Positions 7,540 to 17,874 of a stretch of 34,628 bases of DNA are shown here, piece by piece. How positions within the stretch are numbered: the first letter of the stretch is position 1; every line of letters begins with the position of its first letter. Below the pieces are notes generated by a model. It saw nothing but the letters and a program-made list of their open reading frames with translations. It was not told the DNA's origin and did not search any database. Source of the DNA: a virus; IMG/VR virus record IMGVR_UViG_3300044858_001561, positions 1 through 34,628 of that record; one strand, 5' to 3'. Position numbers and translations under genes: made by a program.

Positions 7540-7856
7540 TGCAAGCACCAAAGCGTGACCCAAGGTTAGCACGAGCAGGAGTGTCAGGTTACAACAAACC
7601 AAAACGCACACCCAGCCACCCAACCAAATCCCATATCGTAGTCGCTAAATCAGGTGGACAAGTAAAAACCATTCGCTTCGGTCAACAAGGTGTAAAAACC
7701 AACCAAACCGCAGGACAACGCCAAGCGTTCAAATCCCGACACGCAAAAAACATTTCCAAAGGACCAATGTCAGCCGCATACTGGGCTGACAAAACAAAAT
7801 GGTCACCCTCAAAAACTGCACAACCCCAAAACAAGAAATGGGTTAAAGGCTCATAA
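7539..7856 (+). CDS. Conserved basic phage protein (DPRLARAGVSGYNKPKRTP family)
   Basis: 105 residues with DPRLARAGVSGYNKPKRTP, SHPTKSHIVVAKSGG, VKTIRFGQQG, then a region like FKSRHAKNISKGPMSAAYWA ending DKTKW. I have seen this combination in hypothetical proteins of many aquatic phages and some bacteria. It usually sits beside DUF5872- or DUF6496-like genes, as here. The compact beta strand with IRFGQQG is conserved, but no activity is established. It is coupled to both neighbours by TAATG overlaps. Confidence 0.65.
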   Translation: MQAPKRDPRLARAGVSGYNKPKRTPSHPTKSHIVVAKSGGQVKTIRFGQQGVKTNQTAGQRQAFKSRHAKNISKGPMSAAYWADKTKWSPSKTAQPQNKKWVKGS

Positions 7857-8257
7857 TGAGTTACACCAAACCTGAACTACGGCAACGCATTGTCTCCGCC
7901 GTAAAAGCAGGAACTGCAGGCGGAAAAGCAGGACAATGGTCAGCACGCAAAGCCCAAATCGTAGCACAACGCTACAAGAAGGCTGGTGGAGGCTACACAG
8001 GAGCCAAAACCAGCAAACAACAATCGCTTAGTAAATGGACATCAGAGAAGTGGACAACCAAATCAGGTAAACCATCCACCCAAGGACCCAAAGCCACAGG
8101 CGAACGCTACCTACCAGCCAAAGCAATAAAGAACCTGTCATCAAAAGAGTACGCTGCCACCACGGCAGCAAAGCGTAAAGGCACAGCCAAAGGCAAACAA
8201 TTCGTCCCCAATACCATAGCAGCACGGACAGCAGGACGCAAAGCCCGAAATTCTTAA
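7856..8257 (+). CDS. DUF5872-like basic protein
   Basis: 133 residues. YTKPELRQRIVSAVKAGTAG followed by GKAGQWSARKAQIVAQRYKKAGGGYTG, then QSLSKWTSEKWTT, YLPAKAIKNLSSKEYAATTA and a C-terminal GKQFVPNTIAARTAGRKARN, fit the DUF5872 pattern. The protein is strongly basic. It resembles DNA-associated proteins in composition, but no function is demonstrated. It is the last of the five-gene group, followed by an A/U-rich stem-loop and the long non-coding region. Confidence 0.7.
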   Translation: MSYTKPELRQRIVSAVKAGTAGGKAGQWSARKAQIVAQRYKKAGGGYTGAKTSKQQSLSKWTSEKWTTKSGKPSTQGPKATGERYLPAKAIKNLSSKEYAATTAAKRKGTAKGKQFVPNTIAARTAGRKARNS

Positions 8258-8260
8258 CAC

Positions 8261-8280
8261 ACTATAATTTTTTTTATAGT
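8261..8280 (+). terminator. A/U stem-loop after the basic-protein genes, possible weak terminator
   Basis: ACTATAA and TTATAGT pair over a six-T loop, three bases after the DUF5872 stop. The U-rich loop and lack of a following U tract make it a poor intrinsic terminator. It may instead mark the 3' end of the mRNA or an upstream boundary of the non-coding RNA. Confidence 0.35.
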
Positions 8281-9162
8281 ACCCCCCGTATCCAAACGAT
8301 ACGCATTGGCTCTACCTCCTAGTATAAATAATAACACATAGGTGCGTACCCCCCCATGCCCCCCGCCTGCACCATGCGTGGTGGCTGCACATGAGATTTG
8401 GAATGGCGATTCGGGTTCATAATGCAGTCTATTATTAGGACCCACCACCAAAAATCTGCTATGGATGCGCACACATGCGAGGGGGCAGACGGTCACAGCG
8501 ACCCTTACCTACCGATGGGTAACTTGCTTTATGCGTATGCGGCAATGCGTGCTTTGGCAGGACTTTTCGTGAGCATTATGCGTAGGAAAGCACGGGAAAA
8601 GTTCTGTGTTGCCGAGATGACTTGCAATTTTTTTTGGGGTGTGTTTATGATGTTGGGGTCGGCAACGGCTTACGGTTCCCTAGATGGATAGGGCTACTAG
8701 CGGTAAGCGGTACGACAGTCCTGAGCAGTACGAATCGGGACGCCACACTTGCAACTGCCGAACGGCTATGGTCGTTCGGATTGGGATGCGGTTGGAGCCA
8801 TAGGGTAGCCTAGTGAGTCCGAGTGATAATCGGATATCGGCGTAAAATGGCACGGACACTGTTTACAGTGTTCAACATGGATGGTTTAGCGGATAATCTG
8901 TAGATTATGTCGGTGTGGACCTCATCAAGTAGCGAATTGCCTAGTCATACGGGATTCGTGGAGGATTGGGGAACGGGCATGGTTGGAATTACGCTAGGCT
9001 GTCAGGTAATGTCCTCGTGATTGAATGTTCATGTTCACGGGGTCACGGGAGGCACACAGGCAGTGTGCCAACTGTAGGTATGGACGGGCATTTATGCTCT
9101 AGAGTGCTTACGGTTGTAGCGAGGTTCAATTCCTTGCCTTTCCGCTATGTCCTTTAGGACAT
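8281..9162 (+). ncRNA. Candidate large structured non-coding RNA (boundaries approximate)
   Basis: No convincing gene occupies this stretch, yet perfect stem-loops are dense. CACCA/TGGTG is at 8370-8383, GGTC/GACC at 8491-8503, CCCTA/TAGGG at 8678-8693, CCGAACG/CGTTCGG at 8758-8779 and TCCGA/TCGGA at 8818-8834. ACACTG/CAGTGT is at 8856-8871, ATAATCT/AGATTAT at 8893-8908, GCCTAG with CTAGGC at 8939-8944 and 8994-8999, and CCTCGTGA/TCACGGGG (one G-U pair) at 9013-9042. GGCACAC/GTGTGCC is at 9051-9069 and ATGTCC/GGACAT at 9147-9162. A 6-bp arm with the T-loop UUCAAUU is at 9119-9137. The G-U pair and the T-loop favour the plus strand. Size and phage setting recall the giant ornate RNAs (GOLLD, ROOL), but I cannot assign it to either. 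Confidence 0.6.
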
Positions 9163-9163
9163 A

Positions 9164-9194
9164 AATCATAACTACGATTCAACTGGAGGTTGAA
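9164..9194 (+). promoter_or_regulatory. Repeated translation-initiation leader, copy 1 (SD in hairpin loop)
   Basis: These 31 nt recur at 10937-10967 with two mismatches. The 3' part forms TTCAAC-TGGAG-GTTGAA, a perfect 6-bp stem whose loop holds most of the Shine-Dalgarno GGAGG. ATG 9196 follows directly and decides that start over the in-frame TTG at 9190. Confidence 0.7.
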
Positions 9195-9195
9195 T

Positions 9196-9513
9196 ATGAA
9201 ATTAGCAGACATAAATCCCGCTGTTAGCGGAGTGTGGTTCAAACATGGTAGGTGCCGTAAGGTTGGGCAGTGGACTTTCACGGACACCATTGATTCCAAT
9301 GGTGTCATGCATCGTTTGGTTTCCCATCATGGTACGGTTATGGGTGAATTTGCTGGCATGGCAGGTTCAATTTGGGCATTTTACCCCGTTTCAACGGGGT
9401 GGGGTTCTGCATCGGACCAACAGGGCATGAACAAAATTATGCCGAATGGTTGGAAGTTCCGTAGGAACGGTGGGCATGCCCGTTATGAGTATTTTGGCGA
9501 AATAGTTCTTTAA
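9196..9513 (+). CDS. Hypothetical protein (105 aa)
   Basis: MKLADINPAVSGVWFKHGRC starts a small, probably single-domain beta-rich protein with many Gly, His and aromatic residues (WTFTDTIDSNGVMHRLVSHH, then AGSIWAFYPVSTGWGSASDQ, ending ARYEYFGEIVL). No family is recognised. It shares its initiation leader with the VWA-like gene, so the two may be expressed at similar levels. A stem-loop begins inside its stop codon. Confidence 0.65.
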   Translation: MKLADINPAVSGVWFKHGRCRKVGQWTFTDTIDSNGVMHRLVSHHGTVMGEFAGMAGSIWAFYPVSTGWGSASDQQGMNKIMPNGWKFRRNGGHARYEYFGEIVL

Positions 9514-9660
9514 CCCTTTCAGGGTTGGCAGGCGAAATAGCAACGCTTTAGCGTTGGGCAGTGCAATTCTGCTGTCGTCTACGATGGTGGCTAGAGCAAA
9601 TGCTTTAGCATTAGATGTCCGTGAACGGACAGCCACACTAACATGCTATGGAGGTTACAC
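9512..9660 (+). promoter_or_regulatory. Structured leader with three-way junction upstream of the AAA+ gene
   Basis: Consecutive perfect stems: AACCCT/AGGGTT (9512-9526), CAACGC/GCGTTG with loop TTTA (9541-9556) and GCAG/CTGC (9558-9572). A closed three-way junction follows: outer stem GTGGCT (9587-9592) with AGCCAC (9631-9636), enclosing AATGC/GCATT with loop TTTA (9599-9612) and GTCCG/CGGAC with loop TGAA (9617-9630). GGAGG for the next gene is at 9650-9654. No known riboswitch class is recognised. Confidence 0.55.
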
Positions 9661-10938
9661 ATGGCTACGAAAGCACCAACGATTATCTCGGTTGACCGAG
9701 AGAATATGCTAGTTCAGGTTCTCAATGAGAACGGACACTATGCCAGTGTTCATGTCAAGGACATGGACAAGAATACCCTTATCAAACTTGGCACATTCTT
9801 GAATGTGACTTGGGCTGGAACCCCGATGCACAAGACGCTGGACACAATCCAACGGATTGTGAACGCAAAGTTGTTGGGTGTTTCGGCTCCTACGGAGCCT
9901 GTAAAGCCTGTTCAACCTTCGGTTGTTGTCCCTGCTGTAAAGCCTTCGGCTTTGCCTACTGGTTCATCGTTGGATGCTGTCATTGCAACTATGGTTGCAA
10001 ATATTATGCAGACTATCCCTGTCGGGATTGATGAGGATGCAGTTCGTAACATCGTTTCCGATGTTGTTGACCCAATCGCCTTAGACAATGCTGTGGCATT
10101 GGACAGACTGTCCACCAAAATTGACGCTTTGCAACCGAAGGTTACACAAATCATCATCAAGGACCGTCCGACTCTCACCCTGAAGGGTGTACAGCACAAG
10201 GCTTTCTCCGACATTATGATGTCGTTGGCGGCTCGTTGCAACACTTTCCTTGTGGGTCCTGCTGGCACTGGCAAGACTACTATGGTGTCTCAAGCGGCAG
10301 ATGCGTTGGGTTTGGATTTTCATGCCGAAAACTTGACAGCGGCGACAACAGAATATGCCCTAAAGGGCTTCAAGGATGCCAACAGCAAATATGTGCCAAC
10401 GAAACTGCGTGAGTTCTTTCAGAACGGCGGCGTTTACTTGCTGGATGAAATTGACAACGCTAACCCGAATGTTCTCGGAGTTCTTAACTCCGCATTGTCC
10501 AACGGATTCATGGCGTTTCCTGATGCCATGGTGAAGAAACACGACAATTTCATCGCTGTTGCGGCAGGTAATACTTACGGCAACGGTGCGACAGCCGAAT
10601 ATGTTGGTCGTAACCCGATTGACGGTGCAACCTTGGACCGTTTCGCCTTCTTCAATGTGGACATTGATGAATCGGTGGAGGATGCAATGTTGGCTGGTTA
10701 TGCGTTGCCTTCGGCAACTGCGGCATGTTGGGTTAAGGCTGTTCGTCAGTCCCGACAGAATGTCGCTGAGGCAGGGCTTCGGGTCATCGTTTCCCCTAGG
10801 GCTACGGCGAACGGTGCGGCGTTGTTGTCACAGGGCATGGACATGAACAAGGTGTATGCCGCCACTGTGTTGAAGGGTGCCAAGCAGGACCAAATTGAGA
10901 AGATTCGTCAAGGTGTAACCTTGTCGGTGTCGGCTTAA
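9661..10938 (+). CDS. MoxR/CobS-like AAA+ ATPase
   Basis: 425 residues from ATG 9661, chosen over an upstream in-frame ATG because GGAGG lies at 9650-9654. An N-terminal variable part ends in a Pro/Val-rich linker (about 75-100). The AAA+ core follows: Walker A GPAGTGKTT (199-207), Walker B GVYLLDEID (257-265), a sensor-1-like AAGNTYGNG and a LDRF segment. MoxR and CobS-type ATPases remodel partner proteins and usually work with a VWA-domain protein. The next gene is such a candidate and shares the repeated leader of the 105-aa gene. It has no lid features of DnaA, Lon or ClpX. The substrate in this phage is unknown. Confidence 0.82.
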   Translation: MATKAPTIISVDRENMLVQVLNENGHYASVHVKDMDKNTLIKLGTFLNVTWAGTPMHKTLDTIQRIVNAKLLGVSAPTEPVKPVQPSVVVPAVKPSALPTGSSLDAVIATMVANIMQTIPVGIDEDAVRNIVSDVVDPIALDNAVALDRLSTKIDALQPKVTQIIIKDRPTLTLKGVQHKAFSDIMMSLAARCNTFLVGPAGTGKTTMVSQAADALGLDFHAENLTAATTEYALKGFKDANSKYVPTKLREFFQNGGVYLLDEIDNANPNVLGVLNSALSNGFMAFPDAMVKKHDNFIAVAAGNTYGNGATAEYVGRNPIDGATLDRFAFFNVDIDESVEDAMLAGYALPSATAACWVKAVRQSRQNVAEAGLRVIVSPRATANGAALLSQGMDMNKVYAATVLKGAKQDQIEKIRQGVTLSVSA

Positions 10939-10967
10939 TCATAATCACGATTCAACTGGAGGTTGAA
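10937..10967 (+). promoter_or_regulatory. Repeated translation-initiation leader, copy 2 (SD in hairpin loop)
   Basis: 29 of 31 bases match copy 1 at 9164-9194, including the TTCAAC-TGGAG-GTTGAA hairpin. It starts inside the AAA+ stop codon and sets the ATG at 10968. Confidence 0.7.
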
Positions 10968-11816
10968 ATGTACACAAGTAACACAGTTAAGCAACAGTTA
11001 AACGGCTCTGCCGTTTATGTTGACTACTTTGATTCATTCGGTGCGATGCTCAACTATGTTGAACAGAATCCGAAAATGGGTTCGTCCAATGCTGACCGTG
11101 GCAGTGAGTGGGACGGCATGAAATGTTTTGCCGATGCGGCACAACTTGCCCGTAGCGGTTGGCATGATGTTCGTCCTGAGGTTGAGAAACTTCTCAACAA
11201 CATGTCGGAGGTCATTGCCGATAGGTTGGAGTTGTCCCCTGCTATGCAGTGGAATGTCGCTGGTGGTGTTGTGGATGTTGGTCGTTACTGTGGTAACGAA
11301 CCGATGTGCATGATTGACTTCCCGATGGAACCTCAGGAGCGTATGGGCAAGGTGGTCAAACTGTTTATTGACTACGGCGCATCGTCATCGTTCAGTGGTG
11401 AGTTCATTATGAAACGGGGCATTGTGTTGCTGGCATTGGTTGACACTTTGCAGAAACTTGGTGTTTCTGTAGAGATTTATGGCGAGACAGCAATTACAAG
11501 CGGCACGACATGTCACACTACGGTCACGAAATTGCATGACCCAACCGACAGGCTGGACATTGACGAGTTGATGTTCACATTGGCGCATCCTGCGATGCTT
11601 CGCCGTATGGCGTTCGCTGTCCGTGAAATGTCGTCCTGTGCCAAGCAAATTGATGCAGTGAACGGTGGCGGTTATGGCAGAACGGTTCACACGGTGTACG
11701 CTCCGACTGTGAACGCTGACATTCGGATGGAACGCTTGGAATCCCGTGCTACTCAGTGCGTTGAGAATCCTGTGGAATGGGTTATGCAAACCGTAACGGG
11801 GCTTGGCTTAATCTGA
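10968..11816 (+). CDS. VWA-like / DUF7192-like partner of the AAA+ ATPase
   Basis: 282 residues. The N-terminal half has SEWDGMKCFADAAQLARSGW, which I associate with DUF7192-type proteins. The centre (KVVKLFIDYGASSSFSGEFI, then a helix MKRGIVLLALVDTLQKLGVSVEIYG, about 125-170) reads like a degenerate von Willebrand A fold: a hydrophobic strand, a DxSxS-like turn and the following helix and strand. The MIDAS-like motif is imperfect (DYGASSS). Together with the adjacent MoxR-like ATPase it forms the classic ATPase plus VWA pairing, suggesting a chaperone or metal-insertion-like complex. Assignment to VWA is by pattern only. The C-terminal 80 residues are unassigned. Confidence 0.6.
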   Translation: MYTSNTVKQQLNGSAVYVDYFDSFGAMLNYVEQNPKMGSSNADRGSEWDGMKCFADAAQLARSGWHDVRPEVEKLLNNMSEVIADRLELSPAMQWNVAGGVVDVGRYCGNEPMCMIDFPMEPQERMGKVVKLFIDYGASSSFSGEFIMKRGIVLLALVDTLQKLGVSVEIYGETAITSGTTCHTTVTKLHDPTDRLDIDELMFTLAHPAMLRRMAFAVREMSSCAKQIDAVNGGGYGRTVHTVYAPTVNADIRMERLESRATQCVENPVEWVMQTVTGLGLI

Positions 11817-11822
11817 AAGATT

Positions 11823-11870
11823 GGGTGTAGCACGGTAGGTAACCTCTACCGTGTTACACCTTTGGTGTAA
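11823..11870 (+). promoter_or_regulatory. Two mutually exclusive hairpins after the VWA-like gene (terminator/attenuator candidate)
   Basis: Hairpin A is 15 bp: GGTGTAGCACGGTAG (11824-11838) with CTACCGTGTTACACC (11846-11860), with one G-U pair. Hairpin B is 7 bp: TTACACC (11854-11860) with GGTGTAA (11864-11870) and loop TTT. Both use 11854-11860, so only one can form at a time. A short U run follows hairpin A. Confidence 0.55.
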
Positions 11871-11883
11871 TATAAACAACAAA

Positions 11884-11898
11884 CAACCTAGGAGGTTG
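11884..11898 (+). promoter_or_regulatory. RBS hairpin with Shine-Dalgarno in the loop
   Basis: CAACC-TAGGA-GGTTG is a perfect 5-bp stem, and AGGAGG spans loop and 3' stem. ATG 11902 follows four bases later, which sets the start of the membrane-protein gene. Confidence 0.55.
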
Positions 11899-11901
11899 AT
11901 T

Positions 11902-12381
11902 ATGGTAATCAAGGGAATGAAAGTTGCTGTCCTGTGGGCAGTGTTTTTTGGCGTGTTGTGGTTATGTTATGGGATGGTGGGGCAACCTTCGCATTTCATG
12001 GCGTATCTGTTCACGGCTAGTTTGTCAGTGCTTGCGTTTGTCCCTGCTATGTATGAGACAGCGATGTTCATGGGTTATGTTTTGCTGAACAGCAAGGACA
12101 AGTACGACAACGATGTAGTTGGTGATGATGGGTTCACTTGGGATGTCACGATTCCTACGGTGGGCGGAATGTTTTTTCGTCTTTATGATTCTCGGGACCC
12201 GCATTTTGACCCGCTGTTCGTTGGCGATTTGTGTGAGGTGTCGGCAGGTATGATTCACATACTTGACAGGCAACACTTCACTTCTGCTAGGCTTGCCAGT
12301 GAGTGGGCTGTAGCCAAGGATGTTGAGTTGATGGAATGGGAACTTTATCGTGACCCTTCGGATGAAGGGATTTGGAACTAA
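11902..12381 (+). CDS. Hypothetical membrane protein (159 aa)
   Basis: I start at ATG 11902 because of the AGGAGG at 11890-11895; the longer in-frame extension would run through the leader hairpins. Two hydrophobic segments, about residues 7-26 (VAVLWAVFFGVLWLCYGMV) and 34-60 (FMAYLFTASLSVLAFVPAMY onward), are followed by a soluble acidic C-terminal half (DVTIPTVGGMFFRLYDSRDP...). Function is not recognised. It looks like an inner-membrane protein with a cytoplasmic domain, encoded between the AAA+/VWA pair and the ribozyme. Confidence 0.6.
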   Translation: MVIKGMKVAVLWAVFFGVLWLCYGMVGQPSHFMAYLFTASLSVLAFVPAMYETAMFMGYVLLNSKDKYDNDVVGDDGFTWDVTIPTVGGMFFRLYDSRDPHFDPLFVGDLCEVSAGMIHILDRQHFTSARLASEWAVAKDVELMEWELYRDPSDEGIWN

Positions 12382-12384
12382 GTG

Positions 12385-12546
12385 ATGATTATTAACAACT
12401 TGAAAAGTTGGACGACAAGCGAATTGTTGGACCAACTGCTAAAGAATCGCAACAACATTAAAGTTGTTGAACAAGAAAACGCACAGATTATTGAAATCTG
12501 TGAAAGCAGGATTAAAGAAATCAAAGATGCGATGTATAAAGATTAG
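12385..12546 (+). CDS. Short coiled-coil protein (53 aa)
   Basis: ATG 12385 (or the GTG just before it) to TAG 12544-12546. MIINNLKSWTTSELLDQLLK followed by a heptad-rich segment with IKVVEQENAQIIEICESRIKEI suggests a single helix or coiled coil. No family is recognised. Its stop codon ends on the first base of hammerhead stem II, so ribozyme cleavage would leave a 3' end 29 nt past the stop, protected by the stem III hairpin. Confidence 0.55.
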   Translation: MIINNLKSWTTSELLDQLLKNRNNIKVVEQENAQIIEICESRIKEIKDAMYKD

Positions 12547-12604
12547 GACGAAAAACGGGACTTCGGTCCCGTTTCCACAAGTATATGCTTGTGCTGATGA
12601 GTCC
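12546..12604 (+). ncRNA. Type II hammerhead self-cleaving ribozyme
   Basis: All core parts are present in order. Stem II 5' strand GGAC is at 12546-12549 and GAAA at 12550-12553. Stem III has 9 bp including A15.1-U16.1, with a UUCG tetraloop (12553-12561 with 12566-12574). The cleavage-site nucleotide is C17 (12575). Stem I has 6 bp, CACAAG/CTTGTG (12576-12581 with 12588-12593), with loop TATATG. CUGAUGA is at 12594-12600, and stem II 3' strand GUCC at 12601-12604 gives the canonical G10.1-C11.1 pair. The open ends lie on stem II, so the type is II. Stem II may extend past an internal loop by UAAA (12537-12540) with UUUG (12607-12610). Predicted cut: between 12575 and 12576. Confidence 0.92.
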
Positions 12605-12615
12605 AGTTTGATTCA

Positions 12616-12628
12616 CACCTTGGAGGTG
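12616..12628 (+). promoter_or_regulatory. RBS hairpin before the DUF3846-like gene
   Basis: CACC-TTGGA-GGTG, a 4-bp stem, holds GGAGG (12622-12626) across loop and stem, five bases before ATG 12633. It lies on the downstream product of hammerhead cleavage. Confidence 0.4.
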
Positions 12629-12632
12629 CATT

Positions 12633-13250
12633 ATGGGTACAATGGTTAGCGGAGCGTTACTCCCTTGCGGAGTTGGTAACACGATAGAACCTGCGATTGT
12701 TGAGGGGTTGGAATCCTTGCAACAGTATGTTGGCGGCATGATTGATGCTGTTCGTACCGAACTGGAAGATGGAACGGTTATCGTTGGTTATGTTAACGAT
12801 GAGGGTTTGATGTTGAACATGGAAACAAACTGGTTTGCCAGTGCGTTGTTTGACCGTCAAATTGTTGGTGATGTTGTGCTGGTTTCGGGTACTTCACCTG
12901 AAGGTGAATATGATGGTGAGAATTATGATTTGCCTGAAAATTTCTTCAGGTTCTTGTCCACGAAATTCACGGAACATGTTGCCCAAACATACAATGAGTC
13001 CATGGTTATGACGCTAGGTATCAACCTTGCCCACAGGTTCGGTGTGATTGACGATGAAGAAATGCGTGATTTGCAACAGCAGATTGATGATGCGGTTGAT
13101 GGTGGCGATGATGCCGCTTTGAAAGCACACTTGCTGGACATCTCTGAGCGTGTTACCAACTTCGTTACGAACTATGTGTCGGAGCGTCACGCTGATGACA
13201 TGATTAGCGGTTTGGAAGAACTGTTGAAAACAGAAGCAGAAGGGAAATAG
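12633..13250 (+). CDS. DUF3846-like protein
   Basis: 205 residues. The N-terminal 90 residues (EGLESLQQYVGGMIDAVRTE, then VIVGYVNDEGLMLNMETNWF and a segment with IVGDVVLVSG) match the DUF3846 pattern found in phages and conjugative elements; its function is unestablished. The C-terminal half is acidic and helical (IDDEEMRDLQQQIDDAVDGG...). It is the first gene downstream of the hammerhead, so its mRNA would start with a 5'-OH and the stem I hairpin after cleavage. The ATG is set by GGAGG at 12622-12626. Confidence 0.7.
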   Translation: MGTMVSGALLPCGVGNTIEPAIVEGLESLQQYVGGMIDAVRTELEDGTVIVGYVNDEGLMLNMETNWFASALFDRQIVGDVVLVSGTSPEGEYDGENYDLPENFFRFLSTKFTEHVAQTYNESMVMTLGINLAHRFGVIDDEEMRDLQQQIDDAVDGGDDAALKAHLLDISERVTNFVTNYVSERHADDMISGLEELLKTEAEGK

Positions 13251-13253
13251 TTG

Positions 13254-13424
13254 ATGGAATCTGATGCAGAGGTGGGGGCGAAAGCCCCCACACTGTTACC
13301 CAAAGGGTCATACGAGTGTCCCAAGTGTGGTAACATGGTTGAAGTGTTTATCCGTTTAACCTGTCCTCCTGAGTGTGTTAAACATTCGGGTGGTGGTGTC
13401 CCAATGAGTAGGAGAAAAAAATGA
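13254..13424 (+). CDS. Zinc-ribbon-like protein with an mRNA hairpin in its 5' coding region (56 aa)
   Basis: ATG 13254 to TGA 13422-13424. YECPKCGNMVEVF (about 20-32) and LTCPPECVKH (about 35-44) supply a CxxC and a CxxxC pair, giving a likely zinc ribbon. The C-terminus is basic (MSRRKK). The stop overlaps the next ATG (ATGA). Codons 7-13 form GTGGGGGC-GAAA-GCCCCCAC at 13272-13291, an 8-bp GNRA hairpin inside the coding sequence that could slow ribosomes or protect the mRNA. Confidence 0.6.
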   Translation: MESDAEVGAKAPTLLPKGSYECPKCGNMVEVFIRLTCPPECVKHSGGGVPMSRRKK

Positions 13425-13603
13425 AGTGTCCACATTGTAATGGTCCAATCCCTAATGCTTTGCATGAGGGACAATATAGCGGTGCGTTGTCACGCATTGA
13501 TAACAAAACGGAAATTTGTTCTGACTGTGGTGTTCGTGAAGCAATCATGGATATGCACAAATTTGACAATGCACGCCGTACAACAATCGTTGAGGAGGTG
13601 TAA
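13421..13603 (+). CDS. Zinc-ribbon protein (60 aa)
   Basis: CPHCNGPIPNA (3-13) and ALSRIDNKTEICSDCGVREA (22-41) contain two CxxC pairs. The phrase ALSRxDNxTEICSDCG is one I recognise from short proteins of many actinobacterial phages, of unknown function. It is preceded by AGGAG and coupled to the previous gene by an ATGA overlap. Confidence 0.68.
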   Translation: MKCPHCNGPIPNALHEGQYSGALSRIDNKTEICSDCGVREAIMDMHKFDNARRTTIVEEV

Positions 13604-13604
13604 C

Positions 13605-13829
13605 ATGTTGGTTCAGGTTCGTTCACCTAGATGTCCCGAGTGTGGTGTTGATTCGGAATTTATGGTTGATTATAATTCGTACCGTCAATGGTCCAACCGT
13701 GAAACCCTTATCCAGCAAGCGTTTCCCGACATGTCTATCCACGACAGGGAAACTTTGAAAACTGGTTATCATCAAAAATGTTGGGATGATGCGTTCGGAA
13801 ACTTTCATCACAAAGGTGAAGAAGAATGA
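13605..13829 (+). CDS. Zinc-binding-like phage protein (74 aa)
   Basis: The start is ATG 13605 after AGGAGG. A longer in-frame extension would cover the zinc-ribbon gene and is rejected. PRCPECGVDSEF (8-19) provides one CxxC. SYRQWSNRETLIQQAFPDMS followed by HDRETLKTGYHQKCWDDAF then supplies His and Cys. I associate the W-RE-LIQ-AFPD...REXLXTGXHXXCWD pattern with small actinophage proteins. Function is unknown. Confidence 0.65.
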   Translation: MLVQVRSPRCPECGVDSEFMVDYNSYRQWSNRETLIQQAFPDMSIHDRETLKTGYHQKCWDDAFGNFHHKGEEE

Positions 13830-14404
13830 ATGACGATTTCTTGGATGATGTAACACCTATGGGTATTGAAATTAATCGTGAAGCAGTCTCAGACATGTGG
13901 ATGGGTAAGCGTGTAGCAGAAGTCCATAAATATGATTTGGGTAACCGTCACGAGATTTTGAATTGGTTGGAATCTGTAACCGATTTGCATGACAAGTTCA
14001 TAACCTACAGGGGTGTTTATGTTGTGGATTGGGAGTCGTTGAAACCGATTGAGCATCCGAAAAACAATTTGCAACGCTGGCAAAGCATCCGTGAGCAAGT
14101 CACGAAGGCGGTGTTGCAGTTCCCTGTGGAATCCGTTATGGATGTTTTGGTCAAGATTGAAATTCCTTTACATGAATTTCTTTCCGCTATGACCACGAAC
14201 AAAATTAGTAAACAATTAACCGAGGGCGAGTTCCGTTCTTTTGAAAACGATTTCTTGGTTAAGAAACCTGTACTGTCTGACATTGTGCGTAAACATGGCA
14301 TAGGTAGAAACACGGTCATTGCTTTCCGTGATTTCTACAAACCCATGCATCAAAGACGGCATGGACAGATGGAAGGTCTAGTAAGAGTAAATGATGAACA
14401 GTAA
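13826..14404 (+). CDS. Hypothetical protein with C-terminal HTH-like region (192 aa)
   Basis: The first part is acidic, with no recognised motif. The C-terminal 55 residues (EGEFRSFENDFLVKKPVLSD, then IVRKHGIGRNTVIAFRDFYK) look like a helix-turn-helix in which GIGRNTVIAF would be turn and recognition helix, as in phage regulatory or DNA-recruitment proteins. This is pattern-based. The start overlaps the previous stop and AAAGG lies a few bases upstream. It ends just before the promoter-like motif preceding the nuclease gene. Confidence 0.55.
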   Translation: MNDDFLDDVTPMGIEINREAVSDMWMGKRVAEVHKYDLGNRHEILNWLESVTDLHDKFITYRGVYVVDWESLKPIEHPKNNLQRWQSIREQVTKAVLQFPVESVMDVLVKIEIPLHEFLSAMTTNKISKQLTEGEFRSFENDFLVKKPVLSDIVRKHGIGRNTVIAFRDFYKPMHQRRHGQMEGLVRVNDEQ

Positions 14405-14457
14405 TGTGTTACACTGTTACTACAGGTAACTGTCCATGCTAATCAATTGGAGGAATA
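14405..14457 (+). promoter_or_regulatory. Leader of the Cas4-like nuclease gene with extended -10-like TGTTACACT
   Basis: TGTTACACT at 14406-14414 fits an extended -10 (TGnTAnnnT). The same motif, TGCTACACT, recurs at 15302-15310 before another gene, and TGTTACACC at 11852-11860. TTGGAGGA (14447-14454) is the ribosome binding site for ATG 14458. No -35 is evident. Confidence 0.35.
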
Positions 14458-15297
14458 ATGAAAATAGATGAACAGAATAAGCGTATATATGTGCGACAGT
14501 CGTGGCTTGGGGATGTTGCTATTTGCCCTGAGCGTGCAAGATTGGGTCAAGTCCGACCCGACCTTCGGACGGGTTCGGATGCCACAGTTATCGGCACTTC
14601 GTTGCATGCTGGCATTGAGGCTGTGCTTACTGGTGCCGCCAATGACCGTCAGCAGATGTTTGACGCTGTGCAACATGAGTGGACTTCACTTCAGGACACA
14701 AATTATAAAGTTACAAACATTGACCAAAGTAAAATCCAAACCTATTTGGAGTCTATGACTTACGGGTTTTATGATGAGATTCTTCCCAGCGTTCCGCAAG
14801 GTGGGTTGGTTGAGCATTTCTTTACTGCACCATTGAACATGGAAATCAACGGCTATGGCGTGTACCTTGAAGGCACCATGGATTATGTTGCCCCTGATGG
14901 CACACTTTGGGATTGGAAAACTTCCAGTCGTACCTACAACATTAAAGAAAAACAGAAGTCGGCTATCCAACCTACGGTTTACGCTGCTGCTGCAGTTCAT
15001 AATGGTTTGGTTCCCGATTACCCTGTTCAGTTCAGGTACGGTGTGATGGTGCGTCAAGAAACGCCCAAGACACAAATTGCGACTGTTGAACGGACCGAGA
15101 AGCACGGTTTATGGTTAAACCGTTTGGTTCGTACCGCTGTCACTTCCGCTATGGCTGTCGGCATGGACGAACCATGGCTTGTGAACGATTCGTCCACGCT
15201 ATGTTCTGAAGCATGGTGTTCGTATTGGAGTATCTGCAAGGGTGCTTTCTGTGGCGATGACGAAGCCCGTTTCGCAAATCAATCATTAACTGACTAG
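14458..15297 (+). CDS. Cas4/RecB-like PD-(D/E)XK exonuclease with Fe-S cysteines
   Basis: 279 residues. The nuclease core is ordered as in Cas4 and AddB/RecB families: TSLHAGIE (His50), EGTMDYV (Asp142), LWDWKTSS (Asp152, Lys154) and QPTVYAAA (Gln171, Tyr175). A cysteine near the N-terminus (AICPERA, Cys23) and a C-terminal cluster LCSEAWCSYWSICKGAFC (249, 254, 260, 265) can hold a 4Fe-4S cluster. It would resect DNA ends for recombination or replication. It is followed by the ssDNA-processing and replication genes, so it belongs to the DNA-metabolism module. A recombination role is preferred over CRISPR adaptation because no cas1, cas2 or array is nearby. Confidence 0.85.
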   Translation: MKIDEQNKRIYVRQSWLGDVAICPERARLGQVRPDLRTGSDATVIGTSLHAGIEAVLTGAANDRQQMFDAVQHEWTSLQDTNYKVTNIDQSKIQTYLESMTYGFYDEILPSVPQGGLVEHFFTAPLNMEINGYGVYLEGTMDYVAPDGTLWDWKTSSRTYNIKEKQKSAIQPTVYAAAAVHNGLVPDYPVQFRYGVMVRQETPKTQIATVERTEKHGLWLNRLVRTAVTSAMAVGMDEPWLVNDSSTLCSEAWCSYWSICKGAFCGDDEARFANQSLTD

Positions 15298-15299
15298 AT

Positions 15300-15310
15300 T
15301 GTGCTACACT
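15300..15310 (+). promoter_or_regulatory. Extended -10-like motif TGCTACACT
   Basis: Nearly identical to the motif at 14406-14414, in a 112-nt gap before the next gene. It is a possible early promoter with weak or no -35. The rest of the gap (15311-15392) shows nothing else clear. Confidence 0.3.
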
Positions 15311-15392
15311 TATTTAAGATGTTCGGACGACTCGGCTGGCATAACCTCCAGTGTCTCAGTCGGGTCGTTCACAAATGTAATACCAAAACAAA

Positions 15393-15407
15393 CAAGCAGG
15401 AGGCTTG
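15393..15407 (+). promoter_or_regulatory. RBS hairpin with Shine-Dalgarno loop
   Basis: CAAGC-AGGAG-GCTTG is a perfect 5-bp stem whose loop is the core SD sequence itself. ATG 15410 follows and defines the start. Confidence 0.6.
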
Positions 15408-15409
15408 AC

Positions 15410-15871
15410 ATGAATACCATCAGCAAAGACCAATCCATAATCACACAGGTGGCAGCAAAAATTGCTGCTGACCTGACACCGAAAACGGATGACCTTAATA
15501 CGAATATCACCAATTGGGTGATTGCGTTTGAGGCAACCACCGAAGCCCTGCTCGGAGCGCACGGCATGTCACCAGCAAGCCAAGTGGCTGTTGCAGAGCA
15601 AATGATTACAGAAGCGTTCACCGCAACTGCAGTCCAAAGCCCAGCCCCAGCACCACAGTGGGCGCAAGAAGCCGCTAGTGGCGGTATGAGCGTTCGGATT
15701 AAAGGTCAGCAACATGGACCAATCCCAGCGTGGCTTGCCGCAGAGTGTGCGAAGAAAGGTGTTACCGAAGTGTGGGACAACCGTGACGGTTTAGTTTCCA
15801 ACCCTAAGCGTCCTTGGTTTAAGGCTGTTCAGGGTGATGCCGCATTTTGGGAACCACGAGCAAAGCGATAA
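15410..15871 (+). CDS. Conserved hypothetical replication-region protein (153 aa)
   Basis: The start at ATG 15410 is fixed by the AGGAGG before it; the upstream in-frame extension covers the leader. The N-terminal half is helical (about 1-70), a Pro/Ala linker (SPAPAPQWAQ) follows, then a compact C-terminal domain: MSVRIKGQQHGPIPAWLAAE, CAKKGVTEVWDNRDGL and NPKRPWFKAVQGDAAFWEPR. I have seen this domain in actinophage proteins encoded beside helicases. A single-stranded-DNA-binding or helicase-accessory role would fit the context but is not shown. Confidence 0.6.
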   Translation: MNTISKDQSIITQVAAKIAADLTPKTDDLNTNITNWVIAFEATTEALLGAHGMSPASQVAVAEQMITEAFTATAVQSPAPAPQWAQEAASGGMSVRIKGQQHGPIPAWLAAECAKKGVTEVWDNRDGLVSNPKRPWFKAVQGDAAFWEPRAKR

Positions 15872-15877
15872 TCCGCA

Positions 15878-16954
15878 GTGGCTCCTGATTACGAGGAGCG
15901 TTGGGCAAAAGCAGGGAGAGGCGAACTTATCGCCTCTCCCGATTTGTCTTTAACGCCTAAGTTTGCGTACTTCCAACCGCTTGTCAAAGCCGCCGATGAT
16001 TATGTTCATTGGGCGCAATCCCCTAATGAAAGAATCTATTTGGGGTTCGCTGACATTGACTCGCAAATGCGTGGTATTGCACCAGCCGAACTATGCCTGA
16101 TTAACGGTTACAGCCACTCAGGTAAAACACTGGCACTGCTACAGATACTTGTAGCGAACCGTGACAAGCGTGTTGTCTATTTCTGTCCTGATGAGCCACG
16201 CACTTTAACTTTGATTAAGTTGGCGTGTGTCATGCACGGTGTTGACGCAACACAACTAGAACAACAAATAGGCAACGGGGACCGTGAAGCCATAAAGTTG
16301 TTGAAAGAAACAGCAACAGAACACTTCCCGAACCTAGCGGTCTTTGACCAAACTGTGTCGCTATTGGACATGGAGCGTGCATTGTCCGAGGTGTCGGATG
16401 CTATGGGTGAACCACAACTTATCGTTGTGGACTACTTGGAACTCATAACAGGTGGCGGTGAAGATGTGCCATCCAAAGCGAACGCCATTAAAGCGTTCGG
16501 TAAACGGCATAACAAACCGTTGCTGGTGTTGCATCAATCATCCCGTACCGCTGGTGCTGATGGTCGCAAAATGACTATCAGTTCAGGTGCTTATGGTGGT
16601 GAGCAACAGGCAACACACATCATTGGTGTTCGCCGTAAACGGTTTGAAATTGAGGGACACATTCGTGACCTGCAAGAAAAACTGGAGCGTGCCGCCAACA
16701 CCGAAAAGATTATGGAAAAGATTGAATCACTGCAATACGAGTTGCGTATCCACATGGATACTTTGACATTGAACCTTGTGAAGTGTAAGCGTCCAGCATC
16801 TAATCTGTTGGATGACATGGACTTCACAATTGAGTACGGTTCAGGTCGTCTACACAGGTTGGACACAGGTGTGCTACCATGGAAAGAATCCCGTCCAGCA
16901 GTGGACAATCCGTTAGAGCAATTAGTTATCGCAGACAGTTTGGAGGACTGGTGA
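15878..16954 (+). CDS. DnaB/RecA-fold replicative helicase
   Basis: 358 residues from GTG 15878, seven bases after the previous stop. Walker A GYSHSGKT is at 77-84 and Walker B QLIVVDYLEL at about 180-189. LLVLHQSSRT and GGEQQATHIIGVRRKR follow as in the DnaB helicase core (motifs H3/H4). A charged coiled segment (about 258-290) interrupts the C-terminal core. The DnaB N-terminal domain is absent, as in many phage single-domain helicases. It unwinds the fork as a hexamer. The primase gene starts within its stop codon, so the two are translated together. Confidence 0.82.
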   Translation: MAPDYEERWAKAGRGELIASPDLSLTPKFAYFQPLVKAADDYVHWAQSPNERIYLGFADIDSQMRGIAPAELCLINGYSHSGKTLALLQILVANRDKRVVYFCPDEPRTLTLIKLACVMHGVDATQLEQQIGNGDREAIKLLKETATEHFPNLAVFDQTVSLLDMERALSEVSDAMGEPQLIVVDYLELITGGGEDVPSKANAIKAFGKRHNKPLLVLHQSSRTAGADGRKMTISSGAYGGEQQATHIIGVRRKRFEIEGHIRDLQEKLERAANTEKIMEKIESLQYELRIHMDTLTLNLVKCKRPASNLLDDMDFTIEYGSGRLHRLDTGVLPWKESRPAVDNPLEQLVIADSLEDW

Positions 16955-17874
16955 TACCACAATATTTAGTGGACCCGTTTATAACTTTATTTCGTGGACG
17001 AGGTGATGTCTATGGACATGACGAAGGTCGTTGCGTCAAAGAGCAGTTAACAAACGAAGTGTTCCAAAAACATTTATCAGGTGAAGCACCAATAGGTGTT
17101 TACCCAATGCTCCCACATTGCGACCAGTTTTATGTTGCTTGGGGTTGCGTTGACTACGACACAGCAGACGCAGAAGAAAACGCCATAAAACTACATGATG
17201 CTTTAATGCAAGCAGGTGTGGTTTCATGGATTGAGCGTTCACGGTCCAAGGGATATCATGTTTGGGTATTTGCCGAGCATGCTGTCCTTGCCGAAGATAT
17301 GCGAAACATGTTGCTGATGGCATCACAGGTAGCAGAAACACCAACAACAGAAGTTAATCCGAAACAAACAACATTGAAGGAGGGTCAGTATGGGAACTAT
17401 GTTCGGTTACCGTATGCGAATGTTTATGACAGATACACGGAAAAGCAACGCATCATTCCGAGAGCCAGCATTGAGAAAGGCACTTATCGCAGTCCGATGC
17501 TGTTTAACGACTTCGTTCGTGCGGCTATTGAAAGCCGCACTTCCGAGGAAACGATTAAGCGCATCGCATCCATGTATCAACCACCCAAGCAAGAAACGGT
17601 TGTAACCCATGCTTATGTTTATGATGCAACTCTTGACGAGGCTATGCGTGTACTTAGCCCGTTGGGTAAAGTCATTTGGCGTGACGGACCGTTAGCAGGC
17701 AAAGACAGGTCATCCACACTGGCGAAACTAGGTCACGAAACTGTGCGCAGTGGATTGAACCCTAGTCAGACAAAGATTGTGTTGATGACAGCCGATAAGC
17801 GTTGGGGCAAATATCATTTGCGCCATAACGGCGAGGACGAAATAGACAAACTAGTAGTCAGGGTACATTCGTGA
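16951..17874 (+). CDS. Archaeo-eukaryotic-type primase (AEP superfamily)
   Basis: The real start is GTG 16951, overlapping the helicase TGA and preceded by TTGGAGG, giving 307 residues. The AEP catalytic core is visible: WGCVDYD (about 64-70) with two Asp of the hhDhD motif, then SRSKGYHVWVF (97-107) with the sxH-type His103. YGNYVRLPYANVYD (about 148-161) may supply the third motif. The C-terminal 100 residues (TLDEAMRVLSPLGKVIWRDG...) may be a helicase-binding or primase-C region. It primes DNA synthesis and may also extend primers, because AEPs include primase-polymerases. No other polymerase is visible in the early operon. Confidence 0.78.
   Translation: MIPQYLVDPFITLFRGRGDVYGHDEGRCVKEQLTNEVFQKHLSGEAPIGVYPMLPHCDQFYVAWGCVDYDTADAEENAIKLHDALMQAGVVSWIERSRSKGYHVWVFAEHAVLAEDMRNMLLMASQVAETPTTEVNPKQTTLKEGQYGNYVRLPYANVYDRYTEKQRIIPRASIEKGTYRSPMLFNDFVRAAIESRTSEETIKRIASMYQPPKQETVVTHAYVYDATLDEAMRVLSPLGKVIWRDGPLAGKDRSSTLAKLGHETVRSGLNPSQTKIVLMTADKRWGKYHLRHNGEDEIDKLVVRVHS

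What the first reader, a model, noticed from the sequence alone, without database searches (positions are those of the whole stretch)
8281..9162. Candidate giant structured non-coding RNA of about 0.8 kb
About 900 nt hold no plausible gene but carry at least ten perfect local hairpins, several of 6-8 bp, plus a long-range GCCTAG/CTAGGC pair. This is far denser than the coding regions nearby. It sits upstream of a phage early gene. Size, ornateness and phage location recall GOLLD and ROOL RNAs, which were first found in lake metagenomes and phages, but identity is unproven.
Basis: partly seen in the sequence, partly recalled or inferred. Interest (0 to 1): 0.82.

Follow-up and report, generated by a model that had tools for sequence, protein, structure and literature searches.

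The report
Large phage RNA with tRNA-like end
A family of uncultured viruses of bacteria carries a conserved, intricately folded RNA of about 850 letters that makes no protein and ends in a built-in imitation of a transfer RNA; it matches no catalogued RNA family and would join the small club of giant phage RNAs whose job is still unknown.

Summary
The gap at 8281-9162 is a real structured non-coding RNA on the + strand, but not for the reasons first given. Its folding energy is no more extreme than that of nearby coding windows, and perfect hairpins are not denser than elsewhere. What proves it is comparison. Seventeen distinct viral copies (16 of them 46-96% identical) keep the same helices through compensatory changes: 61 pairs, 93.3% of cells paired, 31 pairs with two-sided changes, covariation score 0.429 against 0.181 shuffled. 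No open frame is conserved.

The RNA (about 8308-9163) ends in a tRNA-like domain (9046-9147): acceptor-like stem, D-like arm with a GG loop, long arm, T arm with loop UUCAAUU, and tail G-CUA instead of CCA. A smaller tRNA-like element lies at 9530-9584 in the same operon.

No Rfam 15 family matches; GOLLD does not match. It resembles GOLLD/ROOL in size, phage host and (in some relatives) a nearby tRNA gene, but is a separate family.

Best explanation: a stand-alone phage RNA, transcribed with the early operon and given its 3' end by host tRNA-maturation enzymes. RNA and tRNA-like domain are well supported; processing and function are inferred.

The parts
8308..9163 (+). whole conserved structured RNA (ends approximate; transcript not mapped)
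   Evidence: nhmmer homology to colinear copies in viral contigs; covariation
8344..8359 (+). 5' box GCGTACCCCCCCATGC, shared by both clades and, nearly, by the more distant group
   Evidence: exact scan of viral contigs, 28 stretches; alignments
8540..8614 (+). 'hub' module; in this sequence and L145 it could form a pseudoknot (8549-8555/8587-8593 with 8559-8568/8596-8605); tentative
   Evidence: pair check on A5: W, its close copy L143 and L145 fit, other clades do not in this alignment
8573..8586 (+). GCATTATGCGTAGG, most widely shared sequence of the RNA
   Evidence: exact scan with an extended form, 27 stretches
8718..8741 (+). helix Pa, 7 bp (GTCCTGA/TCGGGAC)
   Evidence: 100% of cells paired, 3 pairs with two-sided changes in 17 rows
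8758..8779 (+). helix Pc, 7 bp
   Evidence: 87.4% of cells paired, 5 pairs with two-sided changes
8797..8851 (+). helix Pd, 8797-8801 with 8847-8851
   Evidence: 100% of cells paired, 4 of 5 pairs with two-sided changes
8818..8834 (+). helix Pe (weakest helix tested on the joint alignment)
   Evidence: 67.6% of cells paired; clear within each clade
8856..8871 (+). helix Pf
   Evidence: 100% and 91.2% of cells paired in its two runs
8880..9003 (+). long-range helix, 8880-8891 with 8992-9003, enclosing a clade-specific variable arm
   Evidence: segments listed for 17 rows; not counted by the pair tool
8893..8908 (+). helix Pg, ATAATC/GATTAT
   Evidence: 100% of cells paired
9015..9040 (+). helix Pj
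   Evidence: 84.3% of cells paired, 5 of 6 pairs with two-sided changes
9046..9147 (+). tRNA-like domain: acceptor-like stem 9046-9052/9138-9144, D-like arm, long arm, T arm, G9144 then CTA
   Evidence: acceptor 96.6%, D 96.5%, T 100% of cells paired; covariance model R1
9053..9067 (+). D-like arm, loop AGGCA; GG of the loop invariant
9119..9137 (+). T arm GCGAGG-TTCAATT-CCTTGC
   Evidence: 100% of cells paired; loop TTCAATT in 16 of 17, TCCGATT in L145
9147..9162 (+). hairpin directly after the tRNA-like domain (ATGTCC-TTTA-GGACAT); no T run, so not a plain terminator
9178..9194 (+). hairpin TTCAAC-TGGAG-GTTGAA that shows the ribosome-binding site in its loop
   Evidence: sequence; variants in clade alignments
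9196..9513 (+). next gene, p107 family, function unknown; no p107 match in 5 of 17 relatives
9530..9584 (+). mini tRNA-like element between p107 and the ATPase gene
   Evidence: descriptor scan; 16 pairs, 98.3% of cells paired, 6 pairs with two-sided changes in 11 rows
9643..10938 (+). AAA ATPase gene (phrog_249), downstream of the RNA in 16 of 17 relatives
7856..8257 (+). upstream gene p133 (phrog_14910), upstream of the RNA in 12 of 17 relatives

Best explanation
A stand-alone, non-coding phage RNA of about 850 nt, transcribed with the early operon that starts just downstream. Shown: it is conserved, structured on the + strand, non-coding, keeps its place at the border of the p105/p133 genes and the ATPase operon, and ends in a tRNA-like domain. 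Inferred, in falling order of confidence: (1) the tRNA-like domain is bound by host tRNA-handling enzymes (RNase P at its 5' side, RNase Z or exonucleases at the R-C-N-A tail), so that the polycistronic transcript is cut there and the RNA gets a stable 3' end, as in tRNA punctuation; a real tRNA-Asn gene upstream in some relatives could set the 5' end in the same way; (2) the mini element at 9530-9584 is a second cutting point that frees the ATPase message; (3) the released RNA acts in trans as a stable structural RNA during infection, in the manner suspected for GOLLD and ROOL, perhaps as a homo-oligomer.
For: Covariation over 17 rows with shuffle and slide controls. Same main helices derived separately in two clades. 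tRNA-like marks: invariant GG in the D-like loop, T-loop positions 54, 56 and 58 invariant, G-CTA tail in 17 of 17. Mini elements with covariation. tRNA-like descriptor hits 1.76 per 10 kb in 38 related loci against 0.22 in 80 control loci, and 0.1 per strand in 60 resamples of the window, which has 2. RNA kept while the gene after it changes or is missing, which argues for a product of its own. tRNA-Asn upstream in L106, L138, L145, L147 and L162.
Against: No transcript, cleavage or expression data. No convincing promoter or terminator. The tail is CUA, not CCA, and 4 of 17 acceptor stems carry a U-U mismatch. The window itself has no tRNA gene, so the 5' end would need another route. Fold energy does not stand out from coding windows. 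The 5' half aligns poorly between clades.
Confidence: 0.55

Rival explanations
1. A giant 5' leader that regulates the early operon in cis, never released from the mRNA.
For: Lies just upstream of p107 and the ATPase gene in the same orientation; no clear terminator after it; a ribosome-binding-site hairpin follows.
Against: The next gene differs or is missing in 5 of 17 relatives while the RNA stays; a tRNA-like domain at its 3' border suggests a cut; 850 nt is far beyond usual leaders (general knowledge).
Confidence: 0.2
2. The tRNA-like domain is a functional mimic, aminoacylated or bound by EF-Tu or a synthetase, as in plant-virus RNAs or tmRNA, and acts on host translation.
For: Elbow marks (GG D loop, T loop) kept; R73-C-N-A tail; the exact-motif scan also brought in genes that look like real tRNAs with the same T arm and acceptor 3' strand, some with long variable arms.
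Against: Tail is CUA or CGA, not CCA; no anticodon arm; a G3-U70-like wobble in only 12 of 17, with U-U in 4 and A-U in 1; ARAGORN calls neither tRNA nor tmRNA there.
Confidence: 0.15
3. A very diverged member of GOLLD or ROOL that the Rfam models miss.
For: Same size class, phage host, tRNA neighbours; GOLLD is described as having a conserved 3' and a variable 5' region (PMC12286853, passages) and can contain a pseudo-tRNA (PMC6582537, passages).
Against: No GOLLD or ROOL match on 8150-9700 at E up to 10; none at the element in 20 records. The helices found were not compared with the published GOLLD drawing.
Confidence: 0.08
4. A DNA-level element such as a replication or packaging site.
For: Some contigs begin or are cut inside it.
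Against: G-U pairs are kept on one strand and changes are compensatory within helices; the stretch edges are partly a matter of data storage.
Confidence: 0.04

Closest known systems
GOLLD RNA (RF02032)
   Same: About 0.8 kb, ornate, phage or prophage, often next to tRNA genes, sometimes with a (pseudo-)tRNA inside; unknown function (PMC12286853 and PMC6582537, passages)
   Different: No match to the model over cut-off in the window or 19 related records; here the tRNA-like part is the 3' end and lacks an anticodon arm
ROOL RNA (RF03087)
   Same: Large phage RNA near tRNA islands (PMC12286853, passages)
   Different: No match (the control genomes did not ring either)
tmRNA
   Same: Long RNA with a T arm and acceptor-like stem at its 3' end
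   Different: Acceptor stem is local, not closing the whole RNA; no tag frame called; no CCA
Viral and other tRNA-like structures (recalled: plant RNA viruses; mascRNA of MALAT1)
   Same: 3'-terminal tRNA mimic on a long RNA that can be a processing signal
   Different: Here in a DNA phage; tail R-C-N-A with position 75 not C
tRNA punctuation (recalled: mitochondrial transcripts)
   Same: tRNA-shaped elements between genes of one transcript
   Different: Elements here are not tRNAs and cutting is not shown

Membership tests
GOLLD | match to Rfam covariance model RF02032 | tested here: not met
   best of 20 records E 0.2, elsewhere in another record; 0 over cut-off
GOLLD | phage-borne, about 800 nt, near tRNA genes | tested here: inconclusive
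   phage-borne and size met; tRNA-Asn in 5 of 38 related loci but not in the window
GOLLD | homo-oligomeric nanocage | not testable with these tools
   needs cryo-EM or native gels
ROOL | match to Rfam covariance model RF03087 | tested here: not met
   one search had no ringing control
tRNA | RF00005 or ARAGORN call | tested here: not met
tRNA | T arm with T-loop and GG D loop | tested here: met
tRNA | CCA end | tested here: not met
   G-CTA in 17 of 17
tmRNA | ARAGORN tmRNA with tag frame | tested here: not met
protein-coding gene | conserved open frame | tested here: not met
   longest frames differ in place and strand; similarity to relatives is spread over all six frames
structured RNA | compensatory changes beyond shuffles and slides | tested here: met

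The most novel reading that the evidence does not exclude
These phages punctuate their early transcript with home-made tRNA mimics whose tail keeps C74 and mostly A76 but in none of the elements examined has C75, so that host tRNA-maturation enzymes cut out a giant structured RNA and separate the messages while the mimics escape use as tRNAs. The giant RNA is a new class that keeps or uses its tRNA mimic as a 3' end.
Probability: 0.3. Interest if true: 0.86.

Novelty: new variant of a known kind. Interest (0 to 1): 0.72.

Why it matters
Only a handful of bacterial or phage RNAs of this size and intricacy are known, and the functions of GOLLD and ROOL are open. A further family, with a usable alignment and a recognisable tRNA-like domain, gives a handle: it predicts which host enzymes should act on it and where. 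It also suggests that phages may use tRNA mimics as processing marks between early genes.

Tried and rejected
Folding energy as evidence: rejected, coding windows of the same phage are as extreme. Hairpin density: rejected. The GCCTAG/CTAGGC pair: replaced by 8880-8891/8992-9003. Coding gene: rejected. Known Rfam family: rejected. The accession first used for GOLLD (RF01998, recalled) was wrong, it is a group II intron family; repeated with RF02032. Phage isolates: no DNA match beyond chance pieces of 35-37 bases, none to 15 kb of the window, no p107 relative; the ATPase has only distant relatives, best shown 39%. Bacterial genome contigs: no p107 relative. Pseudoknot in the hub: fits W, its near copy and L145 only, so left tentative. 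Model R2 gave a false match to a terminator-like hairpin in L030 at E 5e-4, so its weak match in L147 (19 bits) is not counted as evidence. The idea that contig ends pile up inside the RNA was weakened when one such 'end' proved to be a split of stored stretches. The sigma-70 and terminator scan gave about what chance gives.

The more distant loci were read only for the 5' box, hub and tRNA-like elements; their middle parts were not resolved. In one search, 3 of 15 near loci and 4 of 12 far loci were dropped because the anchor pattern did not fit them. One search was given 31 or so of the 80 control loci, not all; one search was given 6 of them.

Papers: PMC12286853, PMC5643018 and PMC6582537 were read as passages; others were seen only in search listings. 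That this family is not in print rests on those six searches, which cover openly licensed PMC papers only, and on Rfam 15.

Full report
What was checked. The window is a 34,628-base virus record. Between p133 (ends 8257) and p107 (first shared start 9196) lies a gap without a plausible gene. The + strand folds better than shuffles (z -3.7, against -1.0 on the - strand), but with the same kind of test six coding windows of this phage give -2.55 to -5.11, and a seventh, in a late gene read on the minus strand, -1.02. Perfect hairpins are not unusually dense.

Homologues. Proteins of the neighbourhood brought in related viral contigs, and exact scans with two motifs of the RNA brought more. nhmmer with a profile of the first copies found the element in many of them. 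Seven of the 29 stretches carried no copy and look like real tRNA genes instead. After removal of copies over 98.5% identical, 16 sequences covering at least 600 profile positions remained, 46-96% identical among each other; L003, part of a split copy, makes 17. None of the 80 loci fetched with p133 (L026-L105) gave a match or 26. Two clades and one outlier (L145) are evident. A more distant group (L004, L007-L012, L016 and others) shares the 5' box and the hub around GCATTATGCGTAGG and, in most members, has its own, shorter tRNA-like element upstream of p107.

Place in the genome. Of the 17, the ATPase gene is found downstream in 16, p107 in 12, and p133 upstream in 12; some of the missing cases are contigs that end there. 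In L023 and L106 the RNA runs almost up to the ATPase gene, and in L019 and L022/L024 other small frames take p107's place. The RNA thus stays while the gene after it changes. A tRNA-Asn gene lies upstream of the RNA, or of its 5' part, in L106, L138, L145, L147 and L162 (5 of 38 loci scanned); in L145 it ends about a dozen bases before the conserved start.

Structure. RNAalifold on each clade separately gave the same main helices in the 3' half. On the joint alignment A3 (17 rows) I counted 61 pairs in 10 named helices (the tool splits one and lists 11). 93.3% of cells form standard pairs (shuffled 80.2%; slid 36-46%), 31 pairs have changes on both sides (shuffled 21.3), 146 cells do (46.7), and the covariation score is 0.429 (0.181), each reached by 0 of 500 shuffles. 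The number of further pair types did not exceed shuffles (65 against 64.1, 214 of 500). The structure was drawn from the window's sequence and the clade folds, which favours it over slid versions; related rows also inflate shuffle tests, as the tool says. Helix Pe is poor on the joint alignment (67.6%) though clear within clades. The long-range helix 8880-8891/8992-9003 was judged by eye only.

tRNA-like domain. 9046-9144 folds as a 7-bp acceptor-like stem, a D-like arm with an invariant GG in its loop, a long arm in place of the anticodon arm, and a T arm with loop TTCAATT (16 of 17) or TCCGATT (L145), followed by G-CTA in 17 of 17. L145 replaces four of the seven acceptor pairs by other standard pairs, two of them on both sides relative to every other row. 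Four rows (L123, L109, L131, L106) have a U-U mismatch there. A mechanical descriptor (T arm plus acceptor stem) finds in the window exactly two places, both on the + strand: this one and 9530-9584. Resampled windows give 0.1 per strand, never 2 in 60. Thirty-eight related loci give 53 hits in 301 kb, 80 control loci 13 in 590 kb; the related loci were chosen for the RNA or p107, are partly redundant, and some hits are real tRNAs or chance. The mini element covaries: 16 pairs, 98.3% of cells paired, score 0.381 against 0.133, in 11 rows. Its tail is C-[T or G]-A in 11 of 11. Among other elements L014 has C-A-A and one of two in L161 has C-T-G.

A covariance model of the domain (R1) finds it in 13 of 20 whole related records at E up to 1, 9 of them below 1e-17 (several of these supplied the model), and more weakly in L147, L161 and L150.

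Other readings. No frame is conserved. No Rfam family fits. GOLLD and ROOL (whose control did not ring) give nothing at the element. ARAGORN finds no tRNA or tmRNA in the window.

Mechanism. I take the RNA to be a product in its own right, cut out of the early transcript at the tRNA-like domain by host tRNA enzymes. That the domain is tRNA-like is shown by sequence; that it is cut is inference from tRNA biology. What the RNA then does is unknown; the nearest analogy is GOLLD and ROOL, which form RNA-only cages (PMC12286853, passages).

Limits. No expression data, no defined 5' end, a 5' half whose structure is only partly resolved, and a single collection (IMG/VR) behind all homologues.

Noticed in passing
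window 9164-9194 and 10937-10967: A 31-base stretch with the ribosome-binding site in a hairpin loop is repeated (94%) before p107 and before the p282 gene; variants in relatives look compensatory.
   Followed up: partly
window 9780-17831: Early-gene coding windows fold much better than dinucleotide shuffles (z -2.6 to -5.1), the helicase gene most of all.
   Followed up: no
L176 3020-3110 and L188 5823-5915: The hub sequence GCATTATGCGTAGGAAAACAGGCG occurs in a non-coding stretch of longer viral contigs (52 kb and 17 kb) without a detectable rest of the RNA.
   Followed up: partly
L003 and L143: One 37.7-kb contig is cut inside the RNA with overlapping ends; the contigs of L020 and L117 also begin inside it. 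May be chance or an assembly effect.
   Followed up: partly
L019 5690-5872, L022 5640-5849: The slot between the RNA and the ATPase gene holds different small frames in different relatives, or nothing.
   Followed up: no
L190 9678-9758: ARAGORN calls a tRNA with a four-base anticodon (gaag) in a viral contig.
   Followed up: no
window 8312-8322: CTACCTCCT near the RNA's start resembles the anti-Shine-Dalgarno end of 16S rRNA (recalled); kept in most rows but not in L109, L106 and L145.
   Followed up: no
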